Assembly: GCF_003034845.1 (NCBI RefSeq)
Contig: NZ_PZKC01000009.1
Location: 62,001-126,000 of the forward strand
Direction of reading: 5' to 3'
Length of the DNA stretch: 64,000 nt
DNA from: Pseudothauera lacus
GTDB taxonomy: Bacteria > Pseudomonadota > Gammaproteobacteria > Burkholderiales > Rhodocyclaceae
Part shown: positions 6,666 through 21,386 of the stretch, piece after piece
Numbering within the stretch: position 1 is the stretch's first letter
Layout: each line of letters opens with the position of its first letter
Notes under the pieces: model-generated
Told to the model about the DNA's origin: nothing
Database searches by the model: none
What the model saw: the letters and a program-made list of their open reading frames with translations, nothing else
Translations under genes and position numbers: made by a program

Positions 6666-6672
6666 GTCCGCG

Positions 6673-6703
6673 ATTATAGCCCCGTATCCATTTCTCATGT
6701 CAG
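6673..6703 (-). promoter_or_regulatory. fadD: promoter of the fadD unit
   Basis: A perfect TATAAT lies at 6678..6673 on the minus strand, just past the second TetR gene. CTGACA at 6703..6698 (5 of 6 matches to TTGACA) gives a rather long 19-bp spacer. The predicted start point falls at the edge of operator A. Confidence 0.55.
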
Positions 6704-6710
6704 CGCCTCC

Positions 6711-7391: not shown

Positions 7392-7792
7392 GGCTCACCG
7401 AGGACGCGCTTGCGCCCCTTGTCGTCGACCGCCACGTAGGTCAGGCGGGCCTCGGTGACCTTCACCACCACCGGGTTCTCGGGGTCGCGCTCGGCATACA
7501 CCTCGACATCCACGGTCACCGAGGTGCGCCCCACGGACGCCACCTCGGCGTAGAAGCTGACCAGATCGCCCACCGACACCGGCTGCTTGAACAGGAAGGA
7601 ATTCACCGCGATGGTGGCCACCCGGCACTTGGCACGGCGGCGGGCGGGAATGGCGCCGGCAATGTCGACCATCGCCATGATCCAGCCGCCGAAGACATCC
7701 CCGGCAGGATTGAGGTCGGCGGGCATGGGCATCACGCGCAGCGCGGGTTGCTTGTGTTCGGGCAGACGGGTGGGGTCGGGGGTGGTGCTCAT
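7388..7792 (-). CDS. acyl-CoA thioesterase, YciA/BFIT-like hotdog protein
   Basis: Single-hotdog thioesterase of 134 residues. The signature MPADLNPAGDVFGGWIMAMVDIAG carries the conserved Asn-Pro and the acidic residue used by the YciA family. The TIAVNSFLFKQPVSVGDLV strand and the C-terminal RKRVLGEP tail fit too. It hydrolyses acyl-CoA to free acid plus CoA. The ATG at 7792 begins the conserved part and lies 22 bp after the FadJ-like gene; an earlier start at 7849 would run into that gene. In this operon it could relieve CoA sequestration or lower the acyl-CoA signal read by the regulators (inference). Confidence 0.9.
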   Translation of the reverse strand: MSTTPDPTRLPEHKQPALRVMPMPADLNPAGDVFGGWIMAMVDIAGAIPARRRAKCRVATIAVNSFLFKQPVSVGDLVSFYAEVASVGRTSVTVDVEVYAERDPENPVVVKVTEARLTYVAVDDKGRKRVLGEP

Positions 7793-7814
7793 GCGGATCT
7801 CCGGGGTGGCAGGG

Positions 7815-9809
7815 TCAACGGACGGCCGCCGCCTCCACCAGCGCTGCACTGCCGCCGCTGCGGCGGGCGAAGCCGCCGTGGCGCAGGAAGTTCAGCGGTC
7901 CGCCGGTGAACGGCGCGAAGCCGGTACCGAATATAACCCCGGCATCGGCCAGATCGGCATCCTCGACCACGCCCTGGTCCACACAGCGCTGCACGGCGGC
8001 CAGCAGCGGAGCGAGAATACGCTCGGCGAGTCCGTCGGGGACGCTGCCCGGCGCCGCCTTGACAGCCTTGCCGTGCTCCCAGCGGTAGTAGCCCTGCCCG
8101 CTCTTGCGCCCCAGATGGCCGGCGGCGACGAGATCGAGCAGGCGCTGCGGCGCGCGCGCGGCGGCATCCCCGGCAAGCGCCTTGCCGGCCGCCACGGCGA
8201 TGTCGAGACCGACGCTGTCGACCAGTTCGACCGGGCCCATGGGCATGCCGAAGGCCAGCAAGGCTTCGTCCACCGTGGCCGGGGCAATGCCCTCCTCGAC
8301 GCAGCGCAGGGCCTCCAGCATGTAGGGGCCGAGCACTGCATTGACGAGGAAGCCGGGCGCCGAATTCACCGCCAGCGGCAGCTTGTCGAGGGCACGTACG
8401 AAGGCCGCGGCACGGGTCAGGGCGTCGCCGGCAGTGTCCGCCCCGCGGACCACCTCGACCAGCGGCATCATCGTCACCGGGTTGAAGAAGTGGATGCCGA
8501 GCAGGCGCTCGGGGGCCTGCAGCGCACTGGCGATGTCCTCGATGCGCAGGCTGGAGGTGTTGGTGGCCAGCAGCGCGCCGGGCGGCGCGCGGCGTTCGAC
8601 CTCGGCGAAGAGGGCGCGCTTGGCGTCGAGGTCCTCGAAGATCGCCTCGATGACCAGATCGGCACGGCCGACGCCGTCGCCGCGGGGGTCGGCAATCAGG
8701 CGGTCGAGGGCGAAGCGCACGGCCTTCCCGTCACCGCGCAGCTTGCGCTGATAGAACTTCGCCGCCCGCGCGATGGCCGGCGCGATGCGTTCCACCGACT
8801 GATCCTGCAGGGTCACGGTGAGGCCGCGCAGCGCACACAGCGCGGCAATGTCGCCCCCCATCACCCCGGCGCCGACGACGTGCACGTGGCGCACCGGCTG
8901 CGCGGCCTGCTTGCCCCAGGCCTTGAGGCGCTCCTGGAGGAAGAACACGCGGACCAGGTTTTTCGCCGTCGGCGAGCGGAAGATGCTCTCCAGCGACGAT
9001 GGGCTCGACGCCGGCACGGCCAGCGCATTGCCGCCGTGGCGCGCCCAGATGTCGATGATGGCGTAAGGTGCGGGATAGTGCTCGCGGCGCGCACGCGCGG
9101 CGACCTGCTTGCGCGCGCGCGCCGCCACCACGGCCTTCAGCGGACCATTGAGGAGGCGCGCGAGGAAGGGCGGACGCCGCAACGGCGGCGGCGAGAGGGC
9201 GAGCATGCGCGCGGCGCTGTCCATCACCCGCGGCGGCACGCACTCGTCGGCGAGCCCGATGCGGCGCGCCTTGCGTGCATCCACGCCCTTGCCGGTAAGC
9301 ATCAGGTCGAGCGCCAGCGCCGGACCGATCAGCGCCGGCAGACGCAGCATGCCGCCCCAGGCCGGGACGATGCCCAGCATCACCTCCGGCAGGGCCAGAC
9401 GGGTGCCCGGCTCATCGACGACGACGCGGTAGCGGCAGGCCAGCGCGAGCTCCAGTCCGCCCCCCATGCAGTGGCCGCGAACCAGCGCCACGGTGGGATA
9501 CTTCTGCGCCGCCAGACGGTTGAACAGCGCCCATCCACGGCCGACCAGTTCGCGCACCGCCTGTTCGCTGCCCAGGGTGGTGAACTCCTCGATGTCGGCA
9601 CCGGCGATGAACCCGGCCTCCTTGCCCGAGGCGATCACCAGCCCGGCAGGCGGCGCCGACTCCAGCGCCGCGAGGATGCCGTCGAATTCGTTCATGACCT
9701 CGCGCGCCAGCGTGTTGGTGGCCGCACCGGCCTTGTCCAGGCGCAGCCAGGCGAGGCCATCGGCCTCGCGGCTCAGCGTCCAGTGCTTGTACTTCATGCT
9801 CATGTGCAT
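7815..9809 (-). CDS. FadJ/FadB-type multifunctional enoyl-CoA hydratase / 3-hydroxyacyl-CoA dehydrogenase
   Basis: Protein of 664 residues with the crotonase domain first (GFIAGADIEEF at about 67-77, GHCMGGGLELALAC near 110, then LPEVMLGIVPAWGG) and the dehydrogenase second (VVGAGVMGGDIAAL near 310, IHFFNPVTMMPLVE near 440). It catalyses hydration of enoyl-CoA and NAD+-dependent oxidation of 3-hydroxyacyl-CoA. At 664 residues it is somewhat shorter than E. coli FadB/FadJ (about 715-730). The ATG at 9809 has GGGAG 4-5 nt upstream; ATGs at 9803 and 9797 are alternatives. The domain order is opposite to the enzyme at 2464-4845, so the window encodes two non-orthologous beta-oxidation cores. Confidence 0.92.
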   Translation of the reverse strand: MHMSMKYKHWTLSREADGLAWLRLDKAGAATNTLAREVMNEFDGILAALESAPPAGLVIASGKEAGFIAGADIEEFTTLGSEQAVRELVGRGWALFNRLAAQKYPTVALVRGHCMGGGLELALACRYRVVVDEPGTRLALPEVMLGIVPAWGGMLRLPALIGPALALDLMLTGKGVDARKARRIGLADECVPPRVMDSAARMLALSPPPLRRPPFLARLLNGPLKAVVAARARKQVAARARREHYPAPYAIIDIWARHGGNALAVPASSPSSLESIFRSPTAKNLVRVFFLQERLKAWGKQAAQPVRHVHVVGAGVMGGDIAALCALRGLTVTLQDQSVERIAPAIARAAKFYQRKLRGDGKAVRFALDRLIADPRGDGVGRADLVIEAIFEDLDAKRALFAEVERRAPPGALLATNTSSLRIEDIASALQAPERLLGIHFFNPVTMMPLVEVVRGADTAGDALTRAAAFVRALDKLPLAVNSAPGFLVNAVLGPYMLEALRCVEEGIAPATVDEALLAFGMPMGPVELVDSVGLDIAVAAGKALAGDAAARAPQRLLDLVAAGHLGRKSGQGYYRWEHGKAVKAAPGSVPDGLAERILAPLLAAVQRCVDQGVVEDADLADAGVIFGTGFAPFTGGPLNFLRHGGFARRSGGSAALVEAAAVR

Positions 9810-9901: not shown

Positions 9902-11185
9902 TCAGCAGGCCTCGACCAGCATCGCGCCGCCCTGGCCGCCACCGATGCAGATCGCCGCAACACCGCGCCGGCCGCCATCACGGCGCAGGCGGTGGAGGAG
10001 GTGGAGGACGATGCGCGCGCCGCTGGCACCCACCGGGTGCCCCTGGGCGACGGCGCCACCGTCAACATTCAGGCGTTCCTCGTCGATGGCACCGGGCGCA
10101 CCGGGCAGACCGAGCTCGCCGCGGCAGTAATCGATGTCGGCAAGCGCACGCTGGCAGGCGATGACCTGCGCGGCGAAGGCCTCGTTGATCTCCCAGGCAT
10201 CGAGCTCATTGGGGCGCAGGCCGTGGCGCTGCAGGATGGGCAGGGCCGCATGCACCGGCCCGAGGCCCATCTGCGCCGGATCGAGGCCGGCCCACTGGCT
10301 GTCCACGATGCGTCCGAGCGGCGTCAGGCCATGGCGCTCCACAGCTTCTTCGGAAGCCAGCAGCAGCCACGCCGCACCATCGGTGATCTGCGAGCTGTTG
10401 CCCGCGGTGACACGCCCGTACTTGCGGTCGAAAAAGGGTTTGAGCTTTGCCAGCCCGGCCATCGAAGCGTCGCGGCGCAGCCCGTCGTCGTGGCGCCAGA
10501 CCGTGCCGTCGTGATCGATCAGCGCCACCACCTCGTCGTCGAAGTGGCCGGCGTCCTGCGCCGCAGCGACCCGCAGGTGGCTGCGCACGGAATAGGCATC
10601 CATCTCCTCGCGGCTGATCGCAAAGCGGTGAGCGAGGTTCTCCGCGGTCTGCCCCATCAGCTGGCCGACGATGGGGTCGGTGAGGCCCTTCATGATGCCG
10701 ATCACCGGCGCCAGATAGCCGGGCCTGAACTTCCTCAGCGCGGCGAGCTTCTGCCCGGTGGTCTTGGCGCCGTACCAGCCCGACAGCCAGCGCACCATGG
10801 CGTCGGAGAACAGCAGCGGCGCGCGCGACAGCGCATCCACGCCGCCGGCCAGCACCAGTCCGGAACGCCCGGCGTGGATGTTGGCGATCGCCGAATCGAG
10901 CGCCTGCATGCCGCTGGCGCAGTTGCGCATCACCGTCCACCCCGGCACCTTCTGCCCGCAACCCATGCGCAGCGCCACCACACGGCCGATATTGACCTCG
11001 TCGGGCGAGGGGCTGGCGCAACCCAGGATGACCTCGTCGAGCTGGTCGGGGGCAAAGCGCTGGCGCGCCAGCAGTGCGCTGCCGGCGGCGGTGGCCAGAT
11101 CGGCGGCGGCGAACGGCCCCGGGGCGTTGCGCGCCTTCAGGAAGGGCGTGCGCGCGCCATCGACGACATACACCGGGGCGTTCAT
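9902..11185 (-). CDS. acetyl-CoA C-acyltransferase, FadI-like thiolase
   Basis: Thiolase of 427 residues, the size of FadI-type enzymes. The nucleophilic cysteine is Cys89 in MRNCASGMQALDSA. NEAFAAQVIACQRA, the VDGGAVAQGHPVGASGARI histidine region and the CIGGGQGGAML cysteine motif follow. It removes acetyl-CoA from 3-ketoacyl-CoA. Its ATG overlaps the fadE stop (ATGA at 11182-11185), indicating translational coupling. Together with the downstream FadJ-like enzyme it would form the alpha/beta complex of a second beta-oxidation set. It is clearly a different thiolase subfamily from the one at 1234-2433. Confidence 0.93.
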   Translation of the reverse strand: MNAPVYVVDGARTPFLKARNAPGPFAAADLATAAGSALLARQRFAPDQLDEVILGCASPSPDEVNIGRVVALRMGCGQKVPGWTVMRNCASGMQALDSAIANIHAGRSGLVLAGGVDALSRAPLLFSDAMVRWLSGWYGAKTTGQKLAALRKFRPGYLAPVIGIMKGLTDPIVGQLMGQTAENLAHRFAISREEMDAYSVRSHLRVAAAQDAGHFDDEVVALIDHDGTVWRHDDGLRRDASMAGLAKLKPFFDRKYGRVTAGNSSQITDGAAWLLLASEEAVERHGLTPLGRIVDSQWAGLDPAQMGLGPVHAALPILQRHGLRPNELDAWEINEAFAAQVIACQRALADIDYCRGELGLPGAPGAIDEERLNVDGGAVAQGHPVGASGARIVLHLLHRLRRDGGRRGVAAICIGGGQGGAMLVEAC

Positions 11186-13680
11186 GCCGCCACCTTCTCC
11201 GCCACTGCGGCAGCGCCCGCAGCGCCGGGTACCACCTGCAAGGCCGCACGCAGGTCGAAATCGTAGGGGAAGTCATCGACACGGATGACCTTGTCGCGCA
11301 GGCGATTGCGGCGTTCGACCACTTCGTACTCCGCGGCGCTGATGACACCAGCCTCCAGCGCCTTGCGCCACACCGCATCGACCCCGCCGCCGACCAGCAG
11401 GCCGGGCTTGAAGCGCCCGTCCTTCTGCGCCTTCTTGAGCTTGGCCTCGATGGGCTCGGCTTCCACGGTGGCGAGCAGCGCGGCCTCCAGCGCACCCACC
11501 GCTTCCTCGACGTCGGTCGGCAGATAGACGTCGGCGGTGAGGCGGTCGCGGGTGGCGCCCGGCTCGATCAGCAGGCGGGCAACCTCGTGGCCGAGACGGT
11601 CGGAAGGCACCACATAGGGGCGGCCGAGCGGGAACACCACCAGGCGGCGCAGGATCAGCGCGAAGAAGCGGTTGGGGAAGTTGGCGATCACGCCTTCGAA
11701 GGCGTTCTGCGCCTTGAACATGCAGTCCCAGATCGCCCAGTGCATCAGCGGCGCGTCCGCCGCCTGGCGCCCTTCGGCCTCGTAGCGGCGCAGCGTGGCG
11801 CTGGCCAGATACATCAGCGAGAGGATGTCGCCGAGACGCGCGGAGAGCTTCTCCTTGCGCTTCAGCGCACCGCCCATGGTGCCCATGGAGATGTCGGCGA
11901 GGAAGGCGAAGGCCGCCGAAAAACGCGTCAGCTGCTGGTAGTAGCGCCGCGTCTCGGGGGCGACGTCGGCGGGCACGCCGACGAAGTGCGAGCCGGTCAG
12001 CCCCATCACCAGGGCGCGCGCAGCGCTCGACACGGTGTAGCCGATATGGCCCCAGAAGGCGTCGTCAAAGGCGGCGAGATCATTGTCCTGCGCCGCGTGC
12101 ATTTCCTTCAGCACGTAAGGATGGCAGCGGATCGCGCCCTGGCCGAAGAGGATCAGGCTGCGGGTGAGGATGTTGGCGCCTTCCACGGTGATGCCGACCG
12201 GAATCTGCTGGTAGGCGCGACCGAGGAAGTTCTGCGGCCCCAGGCAGATGCCCTTGCCGCCGATCACGTCCATGCCGTCATTCACCGTCTGACGGGCGCG
12301 CTCGGTGACGTGGTACTTGACGATGGCCGACACCACCGAGGGCTTCTCGCCGAGGTCGATGGAGCCGGCGGTGAGAATGCGCGCCGAGTCCGACAGATAG
12401 GTATTGGCGCCGATGCGGGTGAGCGCTTCTTCCACGCCCTCGAAGCGGCCGATGGCAGTCTTGAACTGGTAGCGCACGCGGGCGTAGGCCCCCACCGCAC
12501 GCGCGGTGAGCTTCTGCATGCCGGTGTTGGAGCCGGGCAGCGAGATGCTGCGCCCGGCCGCCAGGCACTCCATCAGCATGCGCCAGCCCTGGCCGGCCAT
12601 CTTCGGCCCGCCGATGATGAACTCCAGCGGCATGAAGACGTCGGTGCCGCGCACCGGGCCGTTCATCCACACCGCGTTGAGCGGCAGGTGGCGGCGGCCG
12701 ATGTCCACGCCCGGGTGGTCGTGCGGCACCAGCGCGCAGGTGATGCCGAGGTCCTGGTTCTTGCCGAGCAGGCCGTCCGGATCGAAAAGGCGGAAGGCGA
12801 GACCGAACACCGTGCACACCGGTGCCAGGGTGATGTAGCGCTTGTCGAAGGAGACCCGCATGCCGAGCACTTCCTTGCCCTGCCACATGCCCTTGCACAC
12901 CACCCCGGCGTCGGGGATGGAGGCGGCGTCCGAACCGGCCCACGGACTGGTCAGCGCGAAGGCGGGAATGGCCTCGCCACGCGCCAGGCGCGGCAGGTAG
13001 AACTGCTTCTGTTCCGGTGTGCCGTAGTGCAGCAGCAGTTCGGCCGGGCCGAGCGAATTGGGCACCATCACGGTGACCGCGGGCGCCGACGAACGGGTGG
13101 ACAGCTTGGTCACCACCTGGGAGTGGGCGAAGGCCGAGAAGCCCTTGCCGCCGTACTCCCTGGGGATGATCATGCCGAGGAAGCCCTTGTCCTTGATGTA
13201 CTGCCAGACATGCGGCGGCAGGTCCTGCTTCTGCGTGCTCTCCCAGTCATCGGTGAGGCGGCACAGCTCCTCGGTCTCGTTGTCGAGAAAGGCCTGCTCT
13301 TCGGCCGACAGTTTGGGCCAGGGATAGGACTGCAGCTTCTTCCAGTCCGGGCGGCCGGCGAACAGATCGCCTTCCCACCACACCGTGCCGGCTTCCAGCG
13401 CATCCTTCTCGGTCTGCGACATCGACGGCAGGGCCTTGCGGAAGGCGCGGAAGATCGGCGCGCTGACCAGGCTGCGGCGCAGCGGACGGATCAGGAACAG
13501 TGCCGAGAAGACCAACCACGAACCGAGCACCACGGCCGTGGTGAGCGGCGCGAACCCCGCCGCCCAGGAAAGTCCGGCCAACCAGGCCAGACCGATGCCC
13601 GCCCAGGCAAAAAATGGCGCTCGCCCGAAGGCGAGCGCGCCTGCCAAGGGAGGGAGGGAACCGATGAACCACCAGATCAT
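11182..13680 (-). CDS. fadE: FadE-type acyl-CoA dehydrogenase
   Basis: Large FAD-dependent acyl-CoA dehydrogenase of 832 residues (E. coli FadE is 814). It catalyses the first oxidation of beta-oxidation and passes electrons to ETF. Two hydrophobic segments cover about residues 3-70, as in FadE, so membrane association is likely. The acyl-CoA dehydrogenase core has WQYIKDKGFLGMIIPREYGG, SLGPAELLLHYGTPEQK and VEGANILTRSLILFGQGAIR, the last nearly identical to the FadE signature. A C-terminal FadE-specific domain follows. The ATG at 13680 has an AAAGGAGA ribosome site. It is the second gene of the unit headed by TetR regulator 2, with a 78-bp gap, so it could also have its own promoter. Confidence 0.95.
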   Translation of the reverse strand: MIWWFIGSLPPLAGALAFGRAPFFAWAGIGLAWLAGLSWAAGFAPLTTAVVLGSWLVFSALFLIRPLRRSLVSAPIFRAFRKALPSMSQTEKDALEAGTVWWEGDLFAGRPDWKKLQSYPWPKLSAEEQAFLDNETEELCRLTDDWESTQKQDLPPHVWQYIKDKGFLGMIIPREYGGKGFSAFAHSQVVTKLSTRSSAPAVTVMVPNSLGPAELLLHYGTPEQKQFYLPRLARGEAIPAFALTSPWAGSDAASIPDAGVVCKGMWQGKEVLGMRVSFDKRYITLAPVCTVFGLAFRLFDPDGLLGKNQDLGITCALVPHDHPGVDIGRRHLPLNAVWMNGPVRGTDVFMPLEFIIGGPKMAGQGWRMLMECLAAGRSISLPGSNTGMQKLTARAVGAYARVRYQFKTAIGRFEGVEEALTRIGANTYLSDSARILTAGSIDLGEKPSVVSAIVKYHVTERARQTVNDGMDVIGGKGICLGPQNFLGRAYQQIPVGITVEGANILTRSLILFGQGAIRCHPYVLKEMHAAQDNDLAAFDDAFWGHIGYTVSSAARALVMGLTGSHFVGVPADVAPETRRYYQQLTRFSAAFAFLADISMGTMGGALKRKEKLSARLGDILSLMYLASATLRRYEAEGRQAADAPLMHWAIWDCMFKAQNAFEGVIANFPNRFFALILRRLVVFPLGRPYVVPSDRLGHEVARLLIEPGATRDRLTADVYLPTDVEEAVGALEAALLATVEAEPIEAKLKKAQKDGRFKPGLLVGGGVDAVWRKALEAGVISAAEYEVVERRNRLRDKVIRVDDFPYDFDLRAALQVVPGAAGAAAVAEKVAA

Positions 13681-13758: not shown

Positions 13759-14457
13759 CTAGGCCGCTGCGCTGCGCCCGCGCCGCCCTGCCGGACGCGC
13801 GGCGTACTCCGCCAGCGGCGCGCGCAGGCCGCCGAGCAGGAAGGACATCAGGCGTGGCAGCAGGCGTGCGGGGTCGGCATCGTCGAACTTTCCGGCGAAC
13901 AGCTGCAGCGCGTCGGTGCCGGCAATGGCGTAGGACATTGCCCCCATCATGAAATGGAAGCGCCAGAGGATCTCCTCGCGCGGTACGTCAGGCAGCGAGC
14001 GGTACAGCGCGCCGAGAAAACGCTCCAGCACCTCGGCGTATTCCTCGGCGAGGAACTGGCGCACGAAGGCATTGGGCTCGGTGTAGGTGCGCCCGAGCAG
14101 GCGCATGAAGGTATGCCCGCCGTGCTCGGTGTCGGCAGCGAGGACCAGCGCGGTACCGAAGAAGGCTTCGACGATGCGGCTGGGCTTGAGCGGCGCGCCG
14201 CCGGCATCCGCCTCCAGCTTGTCGAGCATGGCCAGGCGCTGGCGGTTGAGTTCGGTGAGGCGGCGGCGGAAGACTTCCTGGATGAGCGCATCCTTGCTGC
14301 CGAAGTGGTAGTTGATCGCCGCCAGATTGACTCCCGCCTGGCTGGTGATCATGCGCATCGAAGTGGCCTCGAAGCCGTGCTCGACGAACAGCTCCTCGGC
14401 CGCATCGAGGATGCGGCTGCGGGTTTCCGGCGTGTGTCGTGGAGTGGGTGCGCTCAT
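13759..14457 (-). CDS. TetR-family regulator 2, PsrA-like
   Basis: Regulator of 232 residues. The N-terminal helix-turn-helix (about 12-58) reads RILDAAEELFVEHGFEATS, then ITSQAGVNLAAINYHFGSKDALIQEVF, strikingly like Pseudomonas PsrA, a TetR repressor of fadBA-type genes that responds to long-chain fatty acids. It heads the fadE unit and has an AAGGAAGAG ribosome site. The two operator copies around its own promoter suggest autoregulation. The operators (CAAAC-N4-GTTT type) agree with the PsrA consensus as I recall it. It is the best candidate for master regulator of the three fatty-acid units here; the exact ligand is unknown. Confidence 0.9.
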   Translation of the reverse strand: MSAPTPRHTPETRSRILDAAEELFVEHGFEATSMRMITSQAGVNLAAINYHFGSKDALIQEVFRRRLTELNRQRLAMLDKLEADAGGAPLKPSRIVEAFFGTALVLAADTEHGGHTFMRLLGRTYTEPNAFVRQFLAEEYAEVLERFLGALYRSLPDVPREEILWRFHFMMGAMSYAIAGTDALQLFAGKFDDADPARLLPRLMSFLLGGLRAPLAEYAARPAGRRGRSAAA

Positions 14458-14475: not shown

Positions 14476-14510
14476 GAATCATTCCGGGACTGCATTCCCG
14501 GGAATGATTC
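14476..14510 (-). other. leader stem-loop ahead of TetR regulator 2
   Basis: GAATCATTCC (14476-14485) pairs with GGAATGATTC (14501-14510), and inner GGGA/TCCC pairs extend the stem to about 14 bp with one bulged base and a 6-nt loop. It lies between the promoter and the ribosome site of regulator 2 and abuts operator B. It could be a further protein-binding palindrome or an mRNA leader structure. Confidence 0.65.
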
Positions 14511-14539
14511 AAACGTTCGTTTTAATTGTACGTTTGAAT
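14507..14539. promoter_or_regulatory. operators B and B2 (TetR/PsrA-type), overlapping pair
   Basis: Site B is ATTCAAACGTTCGTTTTAAT (14507-14526). A second, poorer copy at 14520-14539 matches the shared consensus at 15 of 20 positions and ends in CGTTTGAAT. The two are offset by 13 bp and straddle the -10 of the promoter for TetR regulator 2, as expected for negative autoregulation. Confidence 0.78.
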
Positions 14540-14552
14540 TGCTGCCCGTCAA
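14525..14552 (-). promoter_or_regulatory. promoter of the TetR2-fadE unit
   Basis: TTGACG (14552..14547), a 16-bp spacer and TACAAT (14530..14525) on the minus strand. The -35 overlaps the stop codon of the MMPL transporter gene. The -10 is flanked on both sides by operator sequence. Confidence 0.65.
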
Positions 14553-16894
14553 GCCTTTTTTGCATGCTTGTGCCGACGATCCTGCGGCGCCAGCATGGTC
14601 GACGCCAGCGCCGGCAGCAGCATCACGGCGCCAAGCATGTTGGCGAGGAACACGAAGGCCAGCAGCACCCCCATGTCGGCCTGGAACTTGAGTGCGGAAA
14701 ACGCCCAGGTACCGACGCCGATACTCATCGTCAGGGCTGTGAACATGGTCGCCGTGCCGCGCTGGCGCAGCGCCTCCAGATAGGCTTCGACCAGACCGGC
14801 ACCGCGGCGCAGCTCGTGCTGCATGCGCTCGTAGATGTAGATGCCGTAGTCCACACCCACCCCGACGCCAAGCGCGATCACCGGCAGCGTGGGCACCTTC
14901 AGGCCAATGCCGAGGGTGGCCATCAGGGCGTTGCACAGCACCGCAACGATGGACAGCGGCAGCACGATGCACAGCGTGGCGGTGTGCGAGCGGAACTCCA
15001 TGTAGCACAGCAGGCCGATGGCGAAGAAGAGCAGCACGAGGATCTTCAGCTCGGCGGCGTCGACGGCCTCGTTGGTCGCCGCCATCACGCCGACGTTGCC
15101 GGAAGCCAGACGCAGCTCCAGATGCTCGGAAGCGTTGGCGGCGGCGAAGCGCTTTACCTCCTCGATGACGTGGGCAATGGTGTGGCCCTGGTGGTCACGA
15201 GTGAAGATGAGGATCTGCATCGCACTGCAGTCGGTGTTGAGCAGCCCGGTGCTGGTATCGATCGGCGTCACCGACTGTGCCAGCACACTGGGGTCGCGCG
15301 ACAGCACGCGCCAGCGCGGGCTGCCTTCGTTCCAGCCGGCGTTGATCACCTTGGCCATCCCCGGCAGCGAGAGCACGCCCTGCACGCCGTGGGTGTTGCG
15401 CATGTGGGTCTCGAAGCGGTCCAGGGTGTCCATGATGTCGAAATCGGTACATGCACCATCGACGCCGTGCGACTGCGCGATCACCGACAGCACGTCCACG
15501 CCGATCGAGAACGACTCGACGATGGCAGCGGTGTCGAGGTTGTAGCGCGAGTCGTCGTGCAGTTCCGGAATGCCGGCACCGAGATCGCCGGTCTGCAGAT
15601 GGCGCGCCTGCAGCGCGGACACCCCCAGCAGCACCGCCGCGCCGGCCAGCACCCACACCGCACGGCGCGGTTCGGCGAAGCGCTTGAGACGCTGCCACAG
15701 CCACTCGCCGGCCGGTTTCGCGGCATCGCCACCCTTGCCGGCGGCGCTGCGCGGCATCCACGACAGCAGGATGGTGAGCAGCATCTTGTTGGTGATGACG
15801 ATCAGCGCCACGCCGATGGCGGCGGTGATGGCCAGTTCCTGCACCATGGCGATGTCGATGAAGAGGATCACCAGGAAGCCCAGCGCGGTGGTCAGCAGCG
15901 CGGTGGCTCCGGGCATGAAGAGCTTCAGGAAGGCGTTGTTGGCCGCGGTGAGGCCGTCGGCACCGTGATGCACCTCGATCTTCCAGCCGTTGATCATCTG
16001 CACGGCGTGGCTGACGCCGATGGAGAAGATCAGGAAAGGCACCAGGATGGACATCGGGTCGATGCCGTAGCCGACCAGCGGCAGCACGCCGAGTTGCCAC
16101 ACCACCGGCACCAGCGCGCACACCAGACCCAGGCCGGCGAGCTTCGCGGAACCGAGATAGAGGTGGAGCAGCAGCGCAGTGATCACGAAGGTGACGGCAA
16201 AGAACAGCAACACGCCACGCGCGCCTTCGGTGATGTCGCCCACCGCCTTGGCGAAGCCGATGATGTTGACCTCGAAACCCTGGGCCTGATAGCGCTCGCG
16301 CAGGGTCTCGAGCTGCGCGGCGACGGCCAGGTAGTCGAGCTGGGCACCGGTATTGGGATCGATTTCGAGCAGCTCGGCGCTGACCAGCGCAGCGCTGTGG
16401 TCATTGGCCACCAGGCGGCCGACGCGACCCGACTTGAGGACGTTCTCGCGCACCTCGGCGAGATCGTCGGCAGTGCCGGCGAAGTCCGCCGGGATGACGT
16501 TGCCGCCGGCGAAGCCCTCCTCGACCACCTCGATGTAGCGCACGTTGGGGGTGAACAGCGAGGTCACCGTGGCGCGGTCGACCCCGGGAAGGAAGAATAC
16601 GTCATCGGTGAGCGACTTCAGCGCAGCGAAGAAGGGCTCGTTGTAGATGTCCCCGTCACGCGCGCGCAGCACCACCAGCACACGGTTGGCCCCACCGAAG
16701 GTGCTGCGGTAGTCCACGAAGGTTTTCATGTAAGGATGTTCGAGCGGGATCATCTTCTCGAACCCGGCATCCACGCGCAGCTGCGTCGCCGACCAGCCGA
16801 GCAGCACGGTGATGAGCGCGAACAGCGCCAGGAAGGCGCGGCGCTGACGGAACAGCACATGGCCGAGGGCCTGCACCAGACGGTTGGTCTTCAT
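14549..16894 (-). CDS. MMPL/RND-family inner-membrane transporter
   Basis: RND-superfamily protein of 781 residues in the MMPL/HpnN-like group. One transmembrane helix near residue 20 is followed by a large periplasmic domain, a five-helix membrane block (VFLIFSIGVSHAVQM-like region at about 285-400), a second periplasmic domain, and a last block with the hallmark ALGVGVGVDYGIYIYERM. Such proteins move lipids or hydrophobic molecules using the proton gradient. The ATG at 16894 overlaps the YCF48 gene stop (ATGA). No periplasmic adaptor of the usual RND kind is nearby; instead it is the last gene of the DUF1302-DUF1329-YCF48 set, which could supply the periplasmic and outer-membrane parts. The substrate is unknown; lipid or fatty-acid ester is inferred from the beta-oxidation context. 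Confidence 0.88.
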   Translation of the reverse strand: MKTNRLVQALGHVLFRQRRAFLALFALITVLLGWSATQLRVDAGFEKMIPLEHPYMKTFVDYRSTFGGANRVLVVLRARDGDIYNEPFFAALKSLTDDVFFLPGVDRATVTSLFTPNVRYIEVVEEGFAGGNVIPADFAGTADDLAEVRENVLKSGRVGRLVANDHSAALVSAELLEIDPNTGAQLDYLAVAAQLETLRERYQAQGFEVNIIGFAKAVGDITEGARGVLLFFAVTFVITALLLHLYLGSAKLAGLGLVCALVPVVWQLGVLPLVGYGIDPMSILVPFLIFSIGVSHAVQMINGWKIEVHHGADGLTAANNAFLKLFMPGATALLTTALGFLVILFIDIAMVQELAITAAIGVALIVITNKMLLTILLSWMPRSAAGKGGDAAKPAGEWLWQRLKRFAEPRRAVWVLAGAAVLLGVSALQARHLQTGDLGAGIPELHDDSRYNLDTAAIVESFSIGVDVLSVIAQSHGVDGACTDFDIMDTLDRFETHMRNTHGVQGVLSLPGMAKVINAGWNEGSPRWRVLSRDPSVLAQSVTPIDTSTGLLNTDCSAMQILIFTRDHQGHTIAHVIEEVKRFAAANASEHLELRLASGNVGVMAATNEAVDAAELKILVLLFFAIGLLCYMEFRSHTATLCIVLPLSIVAVLCNALMATLGIGLKVPTLPVIALGVGVGVDYGIYIYERMQHELRRGAGLVEAYLEALRQRGTATMFTALTMSIGVGTWAFSALKFQADMGVLLAFVFLANMLGAVMLLPALASTMLAPQDRRHKHAKKA

Positions 16895-17853
16895 TGCGCA
16901 CCCTCCCCGCCCATCGCCAGCCGGCTCACCCCACCCTCGCCGAACAGCAGCACCGCATCGCCTTGCGCCAGCAGCGCGGCATGCACCCCGGTGCCGCCGC
17001 TGTCGACGGCGCGGAAGACGCGCCCCGCGGCATCGCCGAGCAGCACCGTACCGCCCTGCCCGGTGAGCACCACACGTCCGTCGGCAAGCATGGCGGAGGC
17101 GAACAGCGCCGCCTCCGTGGTGCTGTCGACCTCTTCCCAGCTCTCCCCGCGGTCTGCGGAGCGGAAGATGTGGCCACGCATGCCGTAGGCCAGCAAGACC
17201 TCGTCGGCAAGGATCTGCAAACCGAAGAAGGAACCGTTGTAGGGCGAGTCGAGCTCTTCCCAGTGCGCGCCGCCGTCGTCCGAGCGCAACAGCAGGCCGG
17301 CCTCGCCGGCCAGCACCAGGGTATCGTCGGTAAATACGGCGATGGCGTTGAGGTGGCGGTCGTCGGCACTGGCCACAGCCTCCTCCCAGCTCTCACCGCC
17401 ATCATGACTGGTCATCATGCTGCCGTAGGCGCCGAGCGCGAAGCCGCGCCCATCGGCGAGCAGGCGCACGGCCAGCAGCGGCGCTCCGGCCTCCGGCGCG
17501 CTGGACACCTCGCGCCAGCTCACACCGCCATCGCTACTGAGCAGGATCACCGCGTCGTGGCCGACCGCAACGCCGCGCCGGTGGTCGGCAAAGGACAGCG
17601 CGGTAAGGGTGGCGGCGACTGGCGTCGCCACCACCTGCCAGTGCCGGCCGCCATCGGCGGAAGCAAACACCTGGCCGCGCTCGCCGGCGGCGACCAGGCG
17701 CTCGCCGGCCTGCGCGGCAGCAAGGGTGAGCATCTGCTCGATGCGGATCTCGGTGGCCGGCAGCGGTGCCGCGCGCCGTGGCGAGAAGGCGTAGCTGAGC
17801 ATCGCGGCGACAAAGGCCACGAACAACAGGCCAAGCGCTCTGTGTCTGTTCAT
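16891..17853 (-). CDS. YCF48/Hcf136-like beta-propeller protein, periplasmic
   Basis: Protein of 320 residues. A hydrophobic N-terminus (MNRHRALGLLFVAFVAAMLSYAF) acts as signal anchor and points to the periplasm. The rest is a repeat of propeller blades, each with an Asp-box-like SxDGGxxW element: SADGGRHWQ, SSDGGVSWRE, SHDGGESWEE, SDDGGAHWEE and SADRGESWEE. This is the YCF48/BNR type. In plants and cyanobacteria the related Hcf136 is an assembly factor; here the role is unknown. It lies between the DUF1329 gene and the transporter, whose start overlaps its stop, so an accessory or assembly role for the transporter is likely. The ATG at 17853 gives a normal signal anchor; a longer reading from 18018 has no such sequence. 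Confidence 0.85.
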   Translation of the reverse strand: MNRHRALGLLFVAFVAAMLSYAFSPRRAAPLPATEIRIEQMLTLAAAQAGERLVAAGERGQVFASADGGRHWQVVATPVAATLTALSFADHRRGVAVGHDAVILLSSDGGVSWREVSSAPEAGAPLLAVRLLADGRGFALGAYGSMMTSHDGGESWEEAVASADDRHLNAIAVFTDDTLVLAGEAGLLLRSDDGGAHWEELDSPYNGSFFGLQILADEVLLAYGMRGHIFRSADRGESWEEVDSTTEAALFASAMLADGRVVLTGQGGTVLLGDAAGRVFRAVDSGGTGVHAALLAQGDAVLLFGEGGVSRLAMGGEGAQ

Positions 17854-17958
17854 GAAGGACCGTCGGGGAAGGTTGCGGCCGTCCGCGCTCCCCCCCGGGG
17901 CGCGTTCGGCATGTCGGAAACGCCGGGTGCCTGCAATGCCCTGCACCGCAGGCGCGGC

Positions 17959-17986
17959 GCGCAGCCGGGCACCCGCCCGGCTGCGC
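17959..17986 (-). other. strong intercistronic hairpin between DUF1329 and YCF48 genes
   Basis: Perfect 11-bp inverted repeat (17959-17969 with 17976-17986; arm GCGCAGCCGGG) around a 6-nt loop, 40 nt after the DUF1329 stop. A second small stem (GCCTGC 17929-17934 / GCAGGC 17948-17953) follows. No T-run. It probably protects or partly terminates the upstream transcript, which would lower expression of the propeller and transporter relative to DUF1302/DUF1329. Confidence 0.65.
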
Positions 17987-18026
17987 TGATCGGCCCGCTC
18001 CGGCTTGCGGGCACGCATCGCTCAGC

Positions 18027-19373
18027 TCACCGCGTACCCAGCCCGCGCAGGCCGGCCGGGGTGAAGCGTGCCGAACGTCCCTGGGTGACCTGATAGACCT
18101 GCGCCTCGTCGTTGCGCAGGCCCATCGCCAGGTAGCGCCCGGACTGCAGGTCGTGGTGCACTTCGAGATTCGGATACACCATCGGGATGTCGTACCAGTT
18201 GATCGTGTGCAGCTCGGAGACCCGCCACAGCTGGTCGCGCGCATCGTACTTGTCGACCGCGAGGATGGACCACGAGTCCTCGTCGAGGTAGAAGGTGCGG
18301 CGCTTGTAGATATGGCTGGTGCCGTCCTTCAGGCGCGCATCGACCACCCACACGCGGTGCAGCTCATAACGCGCGTGCTCCGGATTGATGTGCCCGGCGT
18401 GCAGCACGTCGGCCATCGAAACGGTGTTGCCGACCAGCTTGTAGGCGTTGTAGGGCACGTAGATCTCACGCTTGCCGACGAGGGTCCACTCGTAACGGTC
18501 GATGGCGCCATTGAACATGTCGAAGTCGTCGTTGGTGCGCAGACCGTCGGCAGCCGTGCCGGGGTTGTCGTAGGCGACGTTGGGCGCCAGGCGCACACGG
18601 CGCTGGCCGGGGTTGTAGGTCCACGCCTGACGGGAATCGAGGAACTCGTGCACGAGCAGGATCTGCCCCGCCAGGCGCGCCGGTGCGGTCACCGTCTGCA
18701 GGAAGTTGAAGAGCTTGCCGGCTTCGATCTGATCGGCGCTCTTGCTCAGGCTGCCATAGTGGAAGTCGTACTCGTACTCGAAGCGCACCGGCGTATAGCT
18801 GCCATTGCGCGTCACCGCCGCCTGGCTCCAGTTCATCGCATACGACTCGCCGCGATAGCGCGCCAGATGGTTCCAGATCGCCTCCATGCCGTTCTGCGGA
18901 ATGGGGAAGGGAATGCCTCCGCTCGTGCCGCTGATGCTGCGCCCGCCATCGACCAGCTTCGCCCGCGTGGCGTTGGCGACGGTCTGGTCGTAATGGCCCT
19001 GCGGGAAGGCTGCGCTGCGCCGGGTCGGGTAGACCTTCATCTTCCAGCTCGGGTAGGTGTTGAGCAGGGCAAGCTGGCCGGGGGTGAGCTTGTCCTGGTA
19101 CTGCGCGGCATTGGCGGCGCTGATCTCGAACAGCGGGCGGTCGGCGGCAAAGGGGTCGGCATAGTGGCCGCCAGCGCTGTGCGCGCCCGGCGGTTTTGCC
19201 AGGCCACCGTCCCAGGCCGGGATGGTGCCTGCGGCATTGCCGGCGCGTTCAGCCCCCAGCGGGGTCAGGCTCTTGCCCAGTTCGGCGGCCTGCGCCGCGC
19301 TCACCTCGGCGTGGGCAGCGGGAACGAAGGCCAGCGCCAGCGCGGCGCCGAGGATGGATAGGGTGTTACGCAT
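18027..19373 (-). CDS. DUF1329 family periplasmic protein
   Basis: Protein of 448 residues with a clear signal peptide (MRNTLSILGAALALAFVPAAHA, cut before EVSAAQ). The mature part is a full-length DUF1329 domain, including YPTRRSAAFPQGHYDQT, the LVHEFLDSRQAWTYNPGQRRVR strand pair, and KRRTFYLDEDSWSILAVDKYDARDQLWR. To my knowledge DUF1329 is grouped with LolA/LolB-like lipoprotein or lipid carriers and nearly always sits next to DUF1302. Here it follows the DUF1302 gene by 30 bp with a CAGGAGA ribosome site. A role as periplasmic lipid-binding partner of the outer-membrane barrel is inferred; no biochemical function is established. Confidence 0.87.
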   Translation of the reverse strand: MRNTLSILGAALALAFVPAAHAEVSAAQAAELGKSLTPLGAERAGNAAGTIPAWDGGLAKPPGAHSAGGHYADPFAADRPLFEISAANAAQYQDKLTPGQLALLNTYPSWKMKVYPTRRSAAFPQGHYDQTVANATRAKLVDGGRSISGTSGGIPFPIPQNGMEAIWNHLARYRGESYAMNWSQAAVTRNGSYTPVRFEYEYDFHYGSLSKSADQIEAGKLFNFLQTVTAPARLAGQILLVHEFLDSRQAWTYNPGQRRVRLAPNVAYDNPGTAADGLRTNDDFDMFNGAIDRYEWTLVGKREIYVPYNAYKLVGNTVSMADVLHAGHINPEHARYELHRVWVVDARLKDGTSHIYKRRTFYLDEDSWSILAVDKYDARDQLWRVSELHTINWYDIPMVYPNLEVHHDLQSGRYLAMGLRNDEAQVYQVTQGRSARFTPAGLRGLGTR

Positions 19374-19403
19374 GGTTCCTGTCTCCTGGTGTCCGGTGGT
19401 AGG

Positions 19404-21248
19404 TCAGAACGAGTAGCTCACGCTCACCGAGAGGAAGTCGCGGTCTTTCAGCGGGTTGGTATGGCTGGAATAAGACGGCGTCTGTCCAGCAGGTAGGAGT
19501 CCAACAAATGCAGAATCCATCCCTTTGATCTTCTTTCCTCCAAAGAAATTGGTGTAAGCGATATCCGCTTGCCAACGCTGCTGGTAGTTGAAACCTAATC
19601 CTAAGGTAATTGCCTTGGCCCCTTCGTTGAAGGTCGGGCTACGCCCCTTGACGTCATGCGAAAAGGCGAAGCGCGGCGACACAGTCGCCCCACCAATCAT
19701 ATTCGGATAGTCCGCCCTCGCCACAAGGCGGTAGCCCCATGAATTCTTGGTAGCGAAGTAAGGCTGTGTTGATCCGAATGACGTGGCTGTCGCAGACCCC
19801 GAAGCGGGGAGAAATACACCCTGAGCGTTGAAAGGAATACCTGAAGGCAGAGTGAGGCGGGTATAGCCAACCTCTCCAACCATGACCAACTGATCGGCAC
19901 CCAGCACTCGCGGCACGGCCTTTGTTCCACTTAACTGGAACTGCTGCATCTTGACCCGCTCGTACCCCCGGATCTCAACACTTCCATCCGATCGAACAAT
20001 GAGATTGGAGGCTGGAATCTGGCTCGACTGTCCCAGCGCTGCAAGAAGCAGTTCGGGAGCTGCGATCTGCAGTGGCTGATTTGACCGGTAGGAGTACTCG
20101 CCCTGCAAGGCTATCCCCCATGGGCCAAGGGTATTGAAGCTCAAACCCCAAAGCTTGATGTCTTCAGGAAACTCTGCGAAGTAGCGCGCCGTTCCTGGGA
20201 CTAAACCAATCACTGGGTTTGGATGAAGAAAGGTAGGCGTTCCTGCGACCCCGGATGCCACAGGCGTCCGACTGTGGTACTTGACGTGATAGAGGCCAAA
20301 CTCCGTGCCATTTAGCTGGTCTGCGAAGTAGCGCAAAGCAATGCCGTATTGGCCGCTATTACGTGCGTTCCGATCTTTGGCGCGCGGAGCCCAAGCAGGA
20401 CCGTCATCATTCAAAACAGCGGGATTCGCCGGTACGACTCCGTCTCTGAGGTCATTTCGGCGGCCAAAACCAATAAAGACCGTTTGCCCCCCTGGGCTCA
20501 GGAAATCGTTACTGCTGAAGAATGTCCCGGCCGGATCAATTTTTGTTTTTTCCCACTCCAGCATCAATGTCGCCTCGACAGACAGACGGTCAGTGACATC
20601 CTGCGACAGCCAAAACATGTTGGTCGGCATCAGTCCCTCACGCAACTCCGAGCCAGGAATACGCAACCGACTTACGTTGACCGGATTGAGAACATTGATG
20701 CCATTTTGAATAAATGTGCTTTCGCCCCAATTCACAACTTGGCGCCCAAGGCGAACGTTCAGGTCACGCCCACCGACATCGAAACGCCCGCGGACGTAGA
20801 CGTCAAGGAACTCGAAGTCCTTTCCGGTCTGACTTTTTGCCTTAGAGCTGAGACCACTCTTGCTCATCACTGCGTCATCGTAAAAGTACGAAGCACGCAC
20901 AAACGCGCCAAAGTTCCGGTAGTTGATCTCTAGATCGTGAGTAGCTTTGGCAGTTAGTGAAACAAGGCTCCCTCGGCTGTAATTGAGGTTGCCATCATCC
21001 TCATTAACCGATCGCGCAGTGCCTCCATTTGCGATCCCGACCAACGACCTATCGCGATCCTGCATGCGCCACAGCCCGCCGAGCGAGATGGTGGTGTCGA
21101 AACTGCCGGTGAGTTCGCCGTCGGCGCTGGAGAACTCGAAGGCGTGCACGGGCACGCTGCCGCCAGCGGCCAGCCCGAGGGCGATGGCGCAGACGACGGG
21201 GCGCAGGGTCGGCCGCGGAACGGCCAGGTACTTCCGGTTCCGGAACAT
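19404..21248 (-). CDS. DUF1302 family outer-membrane beta-barrel protein
   Basis: Protein of 614 residues with a long signal peptide (cut after VPVHA near residue 36) and a C-terminus ending SVSVSYSF, a final phenylalanine after alternating residues as in outer-membrane barrels. The N-terminal FEFSSADGELTGSFDTTISLGG and the RLGRQVVNWGESTFIQNGIN segment are typical of DUF1302. It is probably a channel or receptor in the outer membrane for hydrophobic compounds (inference). The ATG at 21248 has CAGGAGGAG upstream. It heads the DUF1329/YCF48/MMPL unit and is preceded by a well-formed promoter with operator C. Residues from about 63 to 593 are encoded by DNA of clearly lower GC than the rest, so the gene looks mosaic. 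Confidence 0.88.
   Translation of the reverse strand: MFRNRKYLAVPRPTLRPVVCAIALGLAAGGSVPVHAFEFSSADGELTGSFDTTISLGGLWRMQDRDRSLVGIANGGTARSVNEDDGNLNYSRGSLVSLTAKATHDLEINYRNFGAFVRASYFYDDAVMSKSGLSSKAKSQTGKDFEFLDVYVRGRFDVGGRDLNVRLGRQVVNWGESTFIQNGINVLNPVNVSRLRIPGSELREGLMPTNMFWLSQDVTDRLSVEATLMLEWEKTKIDPAGTFFSSNDFLSPGGQTVFIGFGRRNDLRDGVVPANPAVLNDDGPAWAPRAKDRNARNSGQYGIALRYFADQLNGTEFGLYHVKYHSRTPVASGVAGTPTFLHPNPVIGLVPGTARYFAEFPEDIKLWGLSFNTLGPWGIALQGEYSYRSNQPLQIAAPELLLAALGQSSQIPASNLIVRSDGSVEIRGYERVKMQQFQLSGTKAVPRVLGADQLVMVGEVGYTRLTLPSGIPFNAQGVFLPASGSATATSFGSTQPYFATKNSWGYRLVARADYPNMIGGATVSPRFAFSHDVKGRSPTFNEGAKAITLGLGFNYQQRWQADIAYTNFFGGKKIKGMDSAFVGLLPAGQTPSYSSHTNPLKDRDFLSVSVSYSF
19450..21060. other. low-GC segment inside the DUF1302 gene
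   Basis: Composition changes abruptly within one intact reading frame. The 60-base stretches starting at 19561 and 20521 each have 29 G+C of 60, against 39 of 60 at 18061 in the neighbouring DUF1329 gene. The signal peptide/N-terminal end and the last 20 or so codons keep the high GC of the region. The borders are approximate. This looks like an internal segment replaced by homologous recombination. Confidence 0.7.
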
Positions 21249-21366: not shown

Positions 21367-21386
21367 ATTCGAACGTTCGTTTGAAT
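21367..21386. promoter_or_regulatory. operator C (TetR/PsrA-type) for the DUF1302 unit
   Basis: ATTCGAACGTTCGTTTGAAT, a 20-bp near-palindrome of the same form as operators A and B. It overlaps the -10 of the DUF1302 promoter, so a bound repressor would block RNA polymerase. Confidence 0.8.

What the first reader, a model, noticed from the sequence alone, without database searches (positions are those of the whole stretch)
14549..21248. Candidate trans-envelope lipid system: DUF1302 barrel + DUF1329 + YCF48 propeller + MMPL pump
Four co-directional genes encode an outer-membrane barrel, a periplasmic LolA/LolB-like carrier candidate, a periplasmic propeller and an inner-membrane RND/MMPL transporter. 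Together these are one component for every layer of the envelope, without a classical RND adaptor. The unit is followed by two beta-oxidation units and shares their operator. It may import or export long-chain lipids or esters. None of the first three families has an established biochemical role as far as I know.
Basis: partly seen in the sequence, partly recalled or inferred. Interest (0 to 1): 0.78.

Follow-up and report, generated by a model that had tools for sequence, protein, structure and literature searches.

The report
Four-gene envelope pump beside fat-burning genes
A four-protein machine that spans both membranes of this bacterium belongs to a kind already known from solvent- and detergent-degrading bacteria, but this branch of it sits in the fatty-acid-burning operon under a shared switch and tends to occur where the usual fatty-acid gate FadL is missing, so it may be another way of taking up fats.

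Summary
In detail: four co-directional genes encode a DUF1302 outer-membrane barrel (A), a DUF1329 LolA-fold protein (B), a YCF48 propeller (C) and an HAE3/MMPL-type RND pump (D), with no MFP. The kind is known: AmeABCD of Castellaniella defragrans (deletion harms growth on monoterpenes); P. putida homologues are needed on Tween 20. It is common: 71 of 80 named loci hold all four genes.

This sub-lineage is what is new. Of 395 family genomes, 18 have a D at least 68% identical; in all 18 it lies beside psrA and/or fad genes. In the window's genome the operator TTCRAACGNNCGTTYGAA (0-1 mismatch) occurs only before A and before psrA. FadL (PF03349) is missing from 11 of these 18 genomes against 68 of 377 others (p=1e-4; within genera p=4e-4; genomes outside the first survey p=0.01). 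Cassettes at 50-55% identity show no such link.

Best reading: an AmeABCD-type, PsrA-controlled system tied to beta-oxidation that moves long-chain acyl substrates across the envelope, probably inward in place of FadL. Direction is inferred, not shown. Export for detoxification is the main rival.

The parts
19404..21248 (-). A: DUF1302 outer-membrane barrel (AmeA-like), 614 aa, signal-peptide-like N terminus (read by eye)
   Evidence: PF06980 E=1.3e-172; AF2 model pLDDT 82.1, beta-barrel; closest PDB folds OprD/Occ porins (4fsp Z 23.1, rmsd 3.3, 304 aligned) and AlgE (4afk Z 21.5, rmsd 4.8, 351 aligned)
18027..19373 (-). B: DUF1329 periplasmic LolA-fold protein (AmeB-like), 448 aa, signal-peptide-like N terminus (read by eye)
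   Evidence: PF07044 E=4.9e-147, LolA_like E=1e-9; AF2 model pLDDT 88.5; LolA3 9tp6 Z 19.9, rmsd 2.8, 234 aligned; DUF1329 4z48 Z 18.1, rmsd 3.5, 233 aligned
16891..17853 (-). C: YCF48/BNR propeller (AmeC-like), 320 aa with corrected start (listed ORF runs to 18018)
   Evidence: PF14870 E=1.1e-19; Ycf48 2xbg E=1.7e-17; start from sequence and three orthologue lengths
14549..16894 (-). D: HAE3/MMPL-type RND inner-membrane pump (AmeD-like), 781 aa
   Evidence: PF03176 E=5.5e-25; best NCBIfam model TIGR00921 HAE3 E=1e-49, below its cut-off; S295, H296, Q299 in 92, 89, 92 and D682, Y683, Y686 in 92 each of 92 aligned proteins, window included
21368..21385 (.). Operator TTCAAACGAACGTTCGAA overlapping the end of the -10 box of the cassette promoter (TTGACA 21412, CATATT to 21384)
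   Evidence: the promoter matches alone are not more than chance: 2 found, 1.2 expected
14508..14525 (.). Second copy of the operator, overlapping the end of the -10 box of the psrA promoter (TTGACG 14552, TACAAT to 14525)
13759..14457 (-). PsrA-like TetR repressor
   Evidence: PF17939 E=2.4e-36, PF00440 E=5.3e-18; NF053516 PsrA E=9.9e-49, 166 bits, below cut-off 300
11182..13680 (-). FadE-type acyl-CoA dehydrogenase
   Evidence: NF007000 1161.6 bits over cut-off 600; ACDH_C E=1.9e-115
9902..11185 (-). Thiolase (acetyl-CoA C-acyltransferase type)
   Evidence: NF006030 763 bits over cut-off 593
7815..9809 (-). FadJ/FadB-type hydratase/3-hydroxyacyl-CoA dehydrogenase
   Evidence: PF02737 E=8.5e-49, PF00378 E=2.2e-29
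711..7849 (-). Second beta-oxidation unit: 4HBT thioesterase 7388-7849, PsrA-like TetR 6711-7391, AMP-binding ligase (FadD-type) 4918-6597, FadB-type 2464-4875, thiolase 1234-2433, DUF4442 711-1262; own palindrome 6641-6666
   Evidence: the second TetR matches the PsrA-built profile

Best explanation
It is an AmeABCD-type tetrapartite envelope transport system of a sub-lineage dedicated to long-chain fatty acids or related acyl compounds. Proposed path: the DUF1302 barrel admits the substrate at the outer membrane; the LolA-fold DUF1329 protein shields it in the periplasm; the YCF48 propeller docks that carrier to the pump; the RND protein D, with a conserved Asp-Tyr in TM10 and Ser-His-x-x-Gln in TM4, uses proton motive force to release or transfer it at the inner membrane, where FadD-type ligases and the co-regulated FadE/thiolase/FadJ consume it. 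A PsrA-like repressor on two matching operators opens both transport and oxidation when acyl compounds are present. In the species that carry this sub-lineage it probably stands in for FadL. Shown here by computation: the gene set, folds, co-occurrence, operator and promoter geometry, conserved psrA/fad linkage, and the association with FadL absence. Inferred: the substrate, the inward direction, the proton coupling, the binding of PsrA to these sites and the order of hand-over.
For: Linkage: of 395 family genomes 18 have D >=68% identical (one, G332, over a partial match). I read the locus in all 18: each has psrA and/or fad genes beside the cassette, or beside its D where the contig is cut (L174, L178), although gene order differs. 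psrA is seen in 16 of 18 and a fad-type enzyme gene in 17 of 18; the misses are at contig ends (L169, L171; L176) (window). The operator is present with <=2 mismatches in 15 of 18 loci (<=1 in 10) and in 0 of 6 sampled cassettes at 50-55% identity (window). It follows a TTGAC promoter at the same spacing at both A and psrA in the window, L033, L034, L036, L166, L172 and L173. In the own genome only these two sites match with 0-1 mismatch. FadL: the own genome (99.99% complete) has no PF03349. PF03349 is missing in 11 of 18 carriers against 68 of 377 others, p=1.0e-4, within-genus permutation p=3.9e-4; no strong FadL in 15 of 18 against 135 of 377, p=7.6e-5. Without the genomes of the first survey, p=0.010 and 0.003. 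In the window's genus the 3 carriers lack FadL and the 3 others have it; in genus g73, 3 of 3 lack it against 2 of 18. The window's D falls in a 12-row clade, SH-aLRT 100; further members have fad genes around the cassette: Azonexus hydrophilus L082, L085, L086, and L035 from another family; the genomes of L035 and L086 have no PF03349, that of L085 only a weak one. B has the LolA fold.
Against: The RND pumps described in the paper read move substrates outwards, and AmeABCD itself was read as an exporter from Nile Red and tolerance data. 7 of 18 carriers still have a PF03349 protein, 3 of them a strong one. Azonexus hydrophilus keeps a divergent, shorter FadL-like protein at E=1.1e-67. The looser class (D 50-55% identical) shows no FadL loss: 2 of 34 lack it, and strong FadL is lacking in 5 of 34 against 130 of 343, the reverse trend. 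In the 12-row clade, L083/L084 (Perlucidibaca group) have 3-4 PF03349 proteins per genome and no psrA, fadE or thiolase beside the cassette (an opposite-strand ligase, and in L084 a FadL gene, lie nearby); L110 has ligase-type and DUF4442 genes only, L041 none of the fad or psrA probes. 68 genomes lack FadL without this cassette. 5 of the 15 operator-bearing loci have it only with 2 mismatches, the level at which the own genome has 2 further sites and a reversed control pattern 7. Absence of FadL does not prove replacement.
Confidence: 0.45

Rival explanations
1. Export for detoxification. The same machine pumps toxic free fatty acids or other amphiphiles out of the envelope, and the PsrA-like repressor induces it together with beta-oxidation so that the cell survives fatty-acid stress.
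For: The authors' reading of AmeABCD: the mutant is less tolerant of limonene and accumulates slightly more Nile Red under CCCP. [quoted passage not shown] Co-induction with catabolism is equally expected.
Against: An exporter gives no reason for FadL to be missing in carriers. In the AmeABCD study real-time Nile Red efflux was almost identical in mutant and wild type. P. [quoted passage not shown]
Confidence: 0.3
2. General import route for very hydrophobic or bulky substrates (esters, waxes, hydrocarbons) whose specificity is set by the neighbouring catabolic genes. Here the substrate is an acyl ester or a branched or hydroxylated acid rather than ordinary long-chain fatty acid, and FadL loss is a by-product of lifestyle.
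For: Homologous cassettes lie beside quite different genes: on plasmids, aldehyde dehydrogenase, VOC-family and aldolase-family genes in Massilia sp. WG5, aldolase, acetaldehyde dehydrogenase and hydrolase genes in Vibrio alfacsensis, sterol-desaturase-family and SDR genes in P. aeruginosa; monoterpene genes in Castellaniella; a benzene degrader.
Against: In this sub-lineage the neighbours are beta-oxidation-type genes and, in 16 of 18 loci, a PsrA-like regulator (the other two are cut by contig ends). The window genes scanned from 711 to 26975 show no lipase, esterase or hydroxylase domain apart from the thioesterase-fold proteins.
Confidence: 0.15
3. Envelope lipid maintenance or vesicle (nanopod) formation. 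The system moves the cell's own lipids between membranes, as HpnN or BstABC do, and the fad genes recycle them.
For: LolA fold of B; DUF1302 and DUF1329 proteins listed in Delftia nanopods (passage); a DUF1329/YCF48/MMPL cluster was named 'Nanopod' in a benzene degrader (passages).
Against: Patchy presence even within one genus and presence on plasmids do not fit a housekeeping role; NCBIfam HpnN and BstA models score far below cut-off (78.6 of 751.85; 24.5 of 1400).
Confidence: 0.08

Closest known systems
AmeABCD of Castellaniella defragrans 65Phen (PMC6394551; abstract, methods, results and conclusion read)
   Same: Same four families in the same order (DUF1302 605 aa, DUF1329/LolA 451 aa, COG4447/YCF48-type 316 aa, HAE3 RND 787 aa against 614/448/320/781 here); no classical MFP gene (the authors suggest AmeB and AmeC take that part); catabolic island.
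   Different: Monoterpene island there, PsrA-type operator and beta-oxidation here; read as exporter there. AmeABCD sequences were not fetched, so identity and clade were not measured.
P. putida PP_0765/PP_0766 with PP_2018/PP_2019 (PMC10866462, section 12 read)
   Same: [quoted passage not shown] AlphaFold contacts predicted between some of them; a transport system proposed.
   Different: The two gene pairs have distant locus tags; no PsrA operator or FadL loss is mentioned in the section read.
'Nanopod' gene cluster of the benzene degrader ORM2a (PMC13101534; passages)
   Same: Porin-like protein, DUF1329, YCF48-related and MMPL proteins, two of them among the most detected; transport proposed, direction left open.
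   Different: Desulfobacterota; extra proteins such as a universal stress protein; anaerobic benzene rather than fatty acids.
HpnN and other HAE3/MmpL pumps
   Same: D aligns to HpnN and MmpL5 chains at low identity.
   Different: In the alignment HpnN has Asp where D has Ser295 (TM4) and none where D has Asp682 (TM10); MmpL5 aligns to D's C-terminal half and shows Asp-Tyr there in both of its own halves. HpnN is described as working without partner proteins.
FadL/TodX (PF03349)
   Same: Outer-membrane barrel for hydrophobic substrates; the role proposed here.
   Different: A matches only PF06980 at E<=0.001 in Pfam; its best fold matches are OprD/AlgE-like.

Membership tests
AmeABCD-type tetrapartite RND system | DUF1302 + DUF1329 + YCF48 + RND genes in one co-directional cassette, in that order | tested here: met
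   same order in 69 of the 71 complete cassettes among 80 named loci
AmeABCD-type tetrapartite RND system | Inner-membrane pump in the AmeD lineage of HAE3 | tested here: inconclusive
   Best NCBIfam model is HAE3 TIGR00921 (E=1e-49) but 169.3 bits is below the 351.9 cut-off; AmeD itself was not available for a tree
AmeABCD-type tetrapartite RND system | No classical membrane-fusion protein gene in the cassette | tested here: met
   No HlyD/MFP domain among the 17 genes scanned between 711 and 26975, at E<=0.001 or 1e-6
AmeABCD-type tetrapartite RND system | Needed for growth on or tolerance to a hydrophobic substrate | not testable with these tools
   needs a deletion strain
LolA superfamily (B) | LolA-like fold | tested here: met
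   Z 19.9 to LolA3 9tp6 (model 160-446), 18.1 to DUF1329 4z48 (158-443)
LolA superfamily (B) | Carries lipid or lipoprotein | not testable with these tools
   no ligand data
FadL (PF03349) | A matches the Toluene_X/FadL profile | tested here: not met
   only PF06980 reported at E<=0.001; no PF03349 match anywhere in the own genome
Classical HAE1 tripartite RND pump | Periplasmic adaptor plus TolC-type channel encoded with the pump | tested here: not met
   partners are DUF1329, YCF48 and a DUF1302 protein
PsrA regulon | PsrA-family TetR regulator | tested here: inconclusive
   TetR_C_30 E=2.4e-36; PsrA model NF053516 (named for Vibrio) 166 bits, below cut-off 300
PsrA regulon | Operator of the form [GC]AAAC-N2-4-GTTT[GC] (recalled, from no call) | tested here: inconclusive
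   Core AAAC-N4-GTTT found once in the window, at 14511-14522, with T instead of G/C on one flank; the copy before A has a GAAC/GTTC half
HpnN / BstA lipid exporters | Equivalog score | tested here: not met
   78.6 of 751.85 bits and 24.5 of 1400 bits

The most novel reading that the evidence does not exclude
In a group of betaproteobacteria the outer-membrane fatty-acid gate FadL has been displaced by an unrelated four-protein trans-envelope route in which an RND pump works as part of fatty-acid uptake. The whole pathway, from outer-membrane barrel to thiolase, is switched by one PsrA-like repressor.
Probability: 0.35. Interest if true: 0.82.

Novelty: new variant of a known kind. Interest (0 to 1): 0.62.

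Why it matters
FadL is the textbook way for long-chain fatty acids to cross the outer membrane, and how they reach the inner membrane afterwards is unclear (recalled). A machine with one part for each layer, wired to beta-oxidation and enriched where FadL is missing, would give a second, testable route. It would also assign a substrate class to DUF1302 and DUF1329 proteins, whose cassettes are found in at least five phyla (labels), and bear on whether RND pumps can serve uptake.

Tried and rejected
Sequence search of A and B against PDB chains gave nothing at a convincing E-value. The short PsrA-like pattern alone found one site; the full palindrome found both. A shared operator for the second beta-oxidation unit was tested and rejected. 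No TolC-type or FadL chain is among the 50 rows shown for A; this excludes nothing.

The FadL association was first seen in 61 genomes (own plus 60) with D >=50% identical: 7 of 8 lacking against 7 of 53. It did not hold for the 50-55% class in 395 genomes (2 of 34 lacking), so only the >=68% class is claimed. That boundary was set after seeing the data, at a gap in the list (68% to 55%). The genomes share ancestry, hence the within-genus test over 8 genera; four of them (g58, g62, g10, and in effect g32) give little or no contrast. Genomes with neither match are not listed with their genus; from the order of the handles I took it that none belongs to these 8 genera.

Of the 80 named loci, 9 lack a full cassette: 7 are cut by contig ends; L117 (no recognisable D) and L142 (no A upstream) are not explained. 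In the 61 genomes 5 of 39 D loci have no B within 12 kb, and 25 of 61 B loci have no D near, some at contig ends. Four second fragments of B genes and three short A fragments were left out of that count. Of four plasmid records read, three show the full cassette and one (Comamonas) shows D without annotated A-C; the gene table is incomplete. Uniqueness of the asymmetric Asp site in D was considered, but HpnN is also asymmetric, the other way round. L035 and L082 do not show the TTGAC box before the operator. The statement in PMC13101534 that a Delftia DUF1329 deletion impaired growth on phenanthrene was not found in the cited paper by term search. Library searches for FadL with RND/MMPL uptake, or FadL-independent uptake, listed nothing on this cassette beyond the papers named (listings only). 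The four-protein complex was not predicted (single chains only).
Full report
WHAT IS THERE. On the minus strand, 21248 to 14549, four genes follow each other: A (DUF1302, 614 aa), B (DUF1329, 448 aa), C (YCF48/BNR, about 320 aa with the start at 17853) and D (RND/MMPL, 781 aa). C and D overlap by 4 nt. Directly downstream lie a PsrA-like TetR gene, FadE, a thiolase and a FadJ/B-type gene, then a second unit with a thioesterase, another PsrA-like gene, a FadD-type ligase, a FadB-type gene, a thiolase and a DUF4442 gene. Upstream is a divergent DUF1631 gene. The window lies in a 3.66 Mb, 41-contig genome that is 99.99% complete. Its closest named relative for B is Azonexus hydrophilus (72%; that search may leave out records of the window's own or very near genomes), so the host is probably a betaproteobacterium of that neighbourhood; this is an inference.

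FOLDS. B, modelled from 47 sequences (pLDDT 88.5), has the LolA fold over residues 158-446: LolA3 of Porphyromonas Z 19.9 (rmsd 2.8, 234 aligned), a solved DUF1329 protein Z 18.1. A, modelled from 43 sequences (pLDDT 82.1), is a large barrel nearest OprD/Occ porins (Z 23.1, rmsd 3.3, 304 aligned) and AlgE (Z 21.5, rmsd 4.8, 351 aligned). D has S295, H296 and Q299 in TM4 (92, 89 and 92 of 92 aligned proteins, window included) and D682, Y683 and Y686 in TM10 (92 of 92 each). HpnN has Asp at the TM4 site and none at the TM10 site; MmpL5, aligned to D's C-terminal half, has Asp-Tyr there in both of its halves.

THE KIND IS KNOWN. AmeABCD of Castellaniella defragrans is the same set in the same order, with a deletion that hurts growth on monoterpene hydrocarbons (PMC6394551, parts 1-3 of 5 read). 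P. putida DUF1302, DUF1329, a periplasmic protein and an efflux-type pump are reported as essential on Tween 20 (PMC10866462, section 12). A benzene degrader expresses a related cluster (PMC13101534, passages). Here, 71 of 80 named loci carry all four genes, 69 of the 71 in the order ABCD; the D proteins come from at least five phyla (labels). In 61 genomes (own plus 60 relatives), D (E<=2e-27) and B (E<=0.001) co-occur in 24; none has D alone and 1 has B alone (p=4e-16). 40 plasmid records have a D homologue at E<=1e-30; of four read, three hold the full cassette beside varied catabolic genes and one shows D only.

WHAT IS SPECIAL HERE. In a tree of 92 D proteins the window falls in a 12-row clade with SH-aLRT 100. 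Over 395 genomes of the family, 18 have a D at least 68% identical to the window's (one over a partial match). I read the locus in all 18: every one has psrA and/or fad genes beside it (psrA in 16, a fad-type enzyme gene in 17, the misses at contig ends), although the arrangement changes: cassette before psrA; cassette between fadJ and fadB; cassette divergent from fadB. A palindrome TTCRAACGNNCGTTYGAA with at most 2 mismatches is present in 15 of the 18 loci (at most 1 in 10) and in none of 6 sampled cassettes at 50-55% identity. In the window's own genome only two sites match with at most 1 mismatch, one before A and one before psrA; two more match at 2 mismatches, and a reversed control pattern gave 7 at that level. 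In the window and in L033, L034, L036, L166, L172 and L173 both sites follow a TTGAC box at the same spacing; L035 and L082 do not show the box.

FADL. The own genome has no PF03349 protein. In the 395 genomes PF03349 is missing from 11 of the 18 carriers and from 68 of 377 others (p=1.0e-4); a strong FadL is missing from 15 of 18 against 135 of 377 (p=7.6e-5); shuffling within the 8 genera concerned gives 3.9e-4 and 1e-5. Leaving out the genomes in which the pattern was first seen, p is 0.010 and 0.003. In the window's genus the three carriers lack FadL and the three others have it (two of those three hold a distant cassette, 41-43% identical); in genus g73, 3 of 3 lack it against 2 of 18. 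Exceptions: G316, G263 and G118 keep a strong PF03349 hit, and Azonexus hydrophilus has a divergent, short one. Cassettes at 50-55% identity are not linked to FadL loss (2 of 34 lack it; strong FadL lacking in 5 of 34 against 130 of 343). Two lines were fixed after seeing data: the 68% boundary and the 1e-60 line.

READING. The parts fit an envelope-spanning path for a hydrophobic acyl substrate, switched together with its oxidation. The FadL pattern makes uptake the better guess, against the exporter reading of AmeABCD. The published Tween 20 phenotype fits uptake; the Nile Red data fit export weakly, since real-time efflux was almost identical in mutant and wild type. I put uptake of long-chain acyl substrates at 0.45 and export for tolerance at 0.3.

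SIDE RESULT. The barrel A evolves unlike its partners. The window's A is 79% identical to that of another genus (G014) but 61% to its congener G004, while B and D are 87% and 93% identical to G004. In g73, A of G357 is 49-69% identical to the other two and to the window although B is 94-98% and D 90-97% identical within g73; the pair L082/G316 shows A 78-79%, B 96%, D 97% (local alignments, both directions). Third-position GC of the window's A is 0.62 against 0.85 in the two congeners. This suggests replacement or fast change of the surface-exposed part alone; attack at the cell surface is a guess at the cause.

NOVELTY. A new variant of a known kind: the AmeABCD type is in print; its psrA-fad sub-lineage and the FadL association were not found in the searches made (open-licence PMC papers only).

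Noticed in passing
window 19404-21248 (A) and loci L033, L034, L036, L172, L173, L175, L082, L167: The outer-membrane barrel gene appears to be swapped or fast-evolving: window A is 79% identical to another genus but 61% to its congener, while B and D follow the congener (87%, 93%); GC3 0.62 against 0.85 in two congeners.
   Followed up: partly
window 6641-6666: Perfect 11-bp palindrome CGGATTTGAAC-N4-GTTCAAATCCG between a second PsrA-like gene and a FadD-type gene; its core occurs once in the genome, perhaps the operator of the second regulator.
   Followed up: partly
L077 (own genome, contig C37, match at 179794-180567): A lone, distant DUF1302 protein with none of the probe genes within the 20 kb read; seven relatives have a DUF1302 match but no DUF1329 match at all.
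   Followed up: no
window 59286-63598: A separate AcrB-type RND pump with a HlyD-type adaptor gene.
   Followed up: no
D protein, TM4 and TM10 (window 14549-16894): Conserved Ser-His-x-x-Gln in TM4 where HpnN has Asp, with Asp-Tyr kept in TM10: an asymmetric proton-relay candidate for the whole lineage.
   Followed up: partly
L061, L063 to L068, L070, L072, L073: A second, distant branch of D (27-30% identical; 10 rows in the tree) also travels with DUF1329, mostly with YCF48 and sometimes with very divergent DUF1302 proteins, in other gene orders.
   Followed up: no
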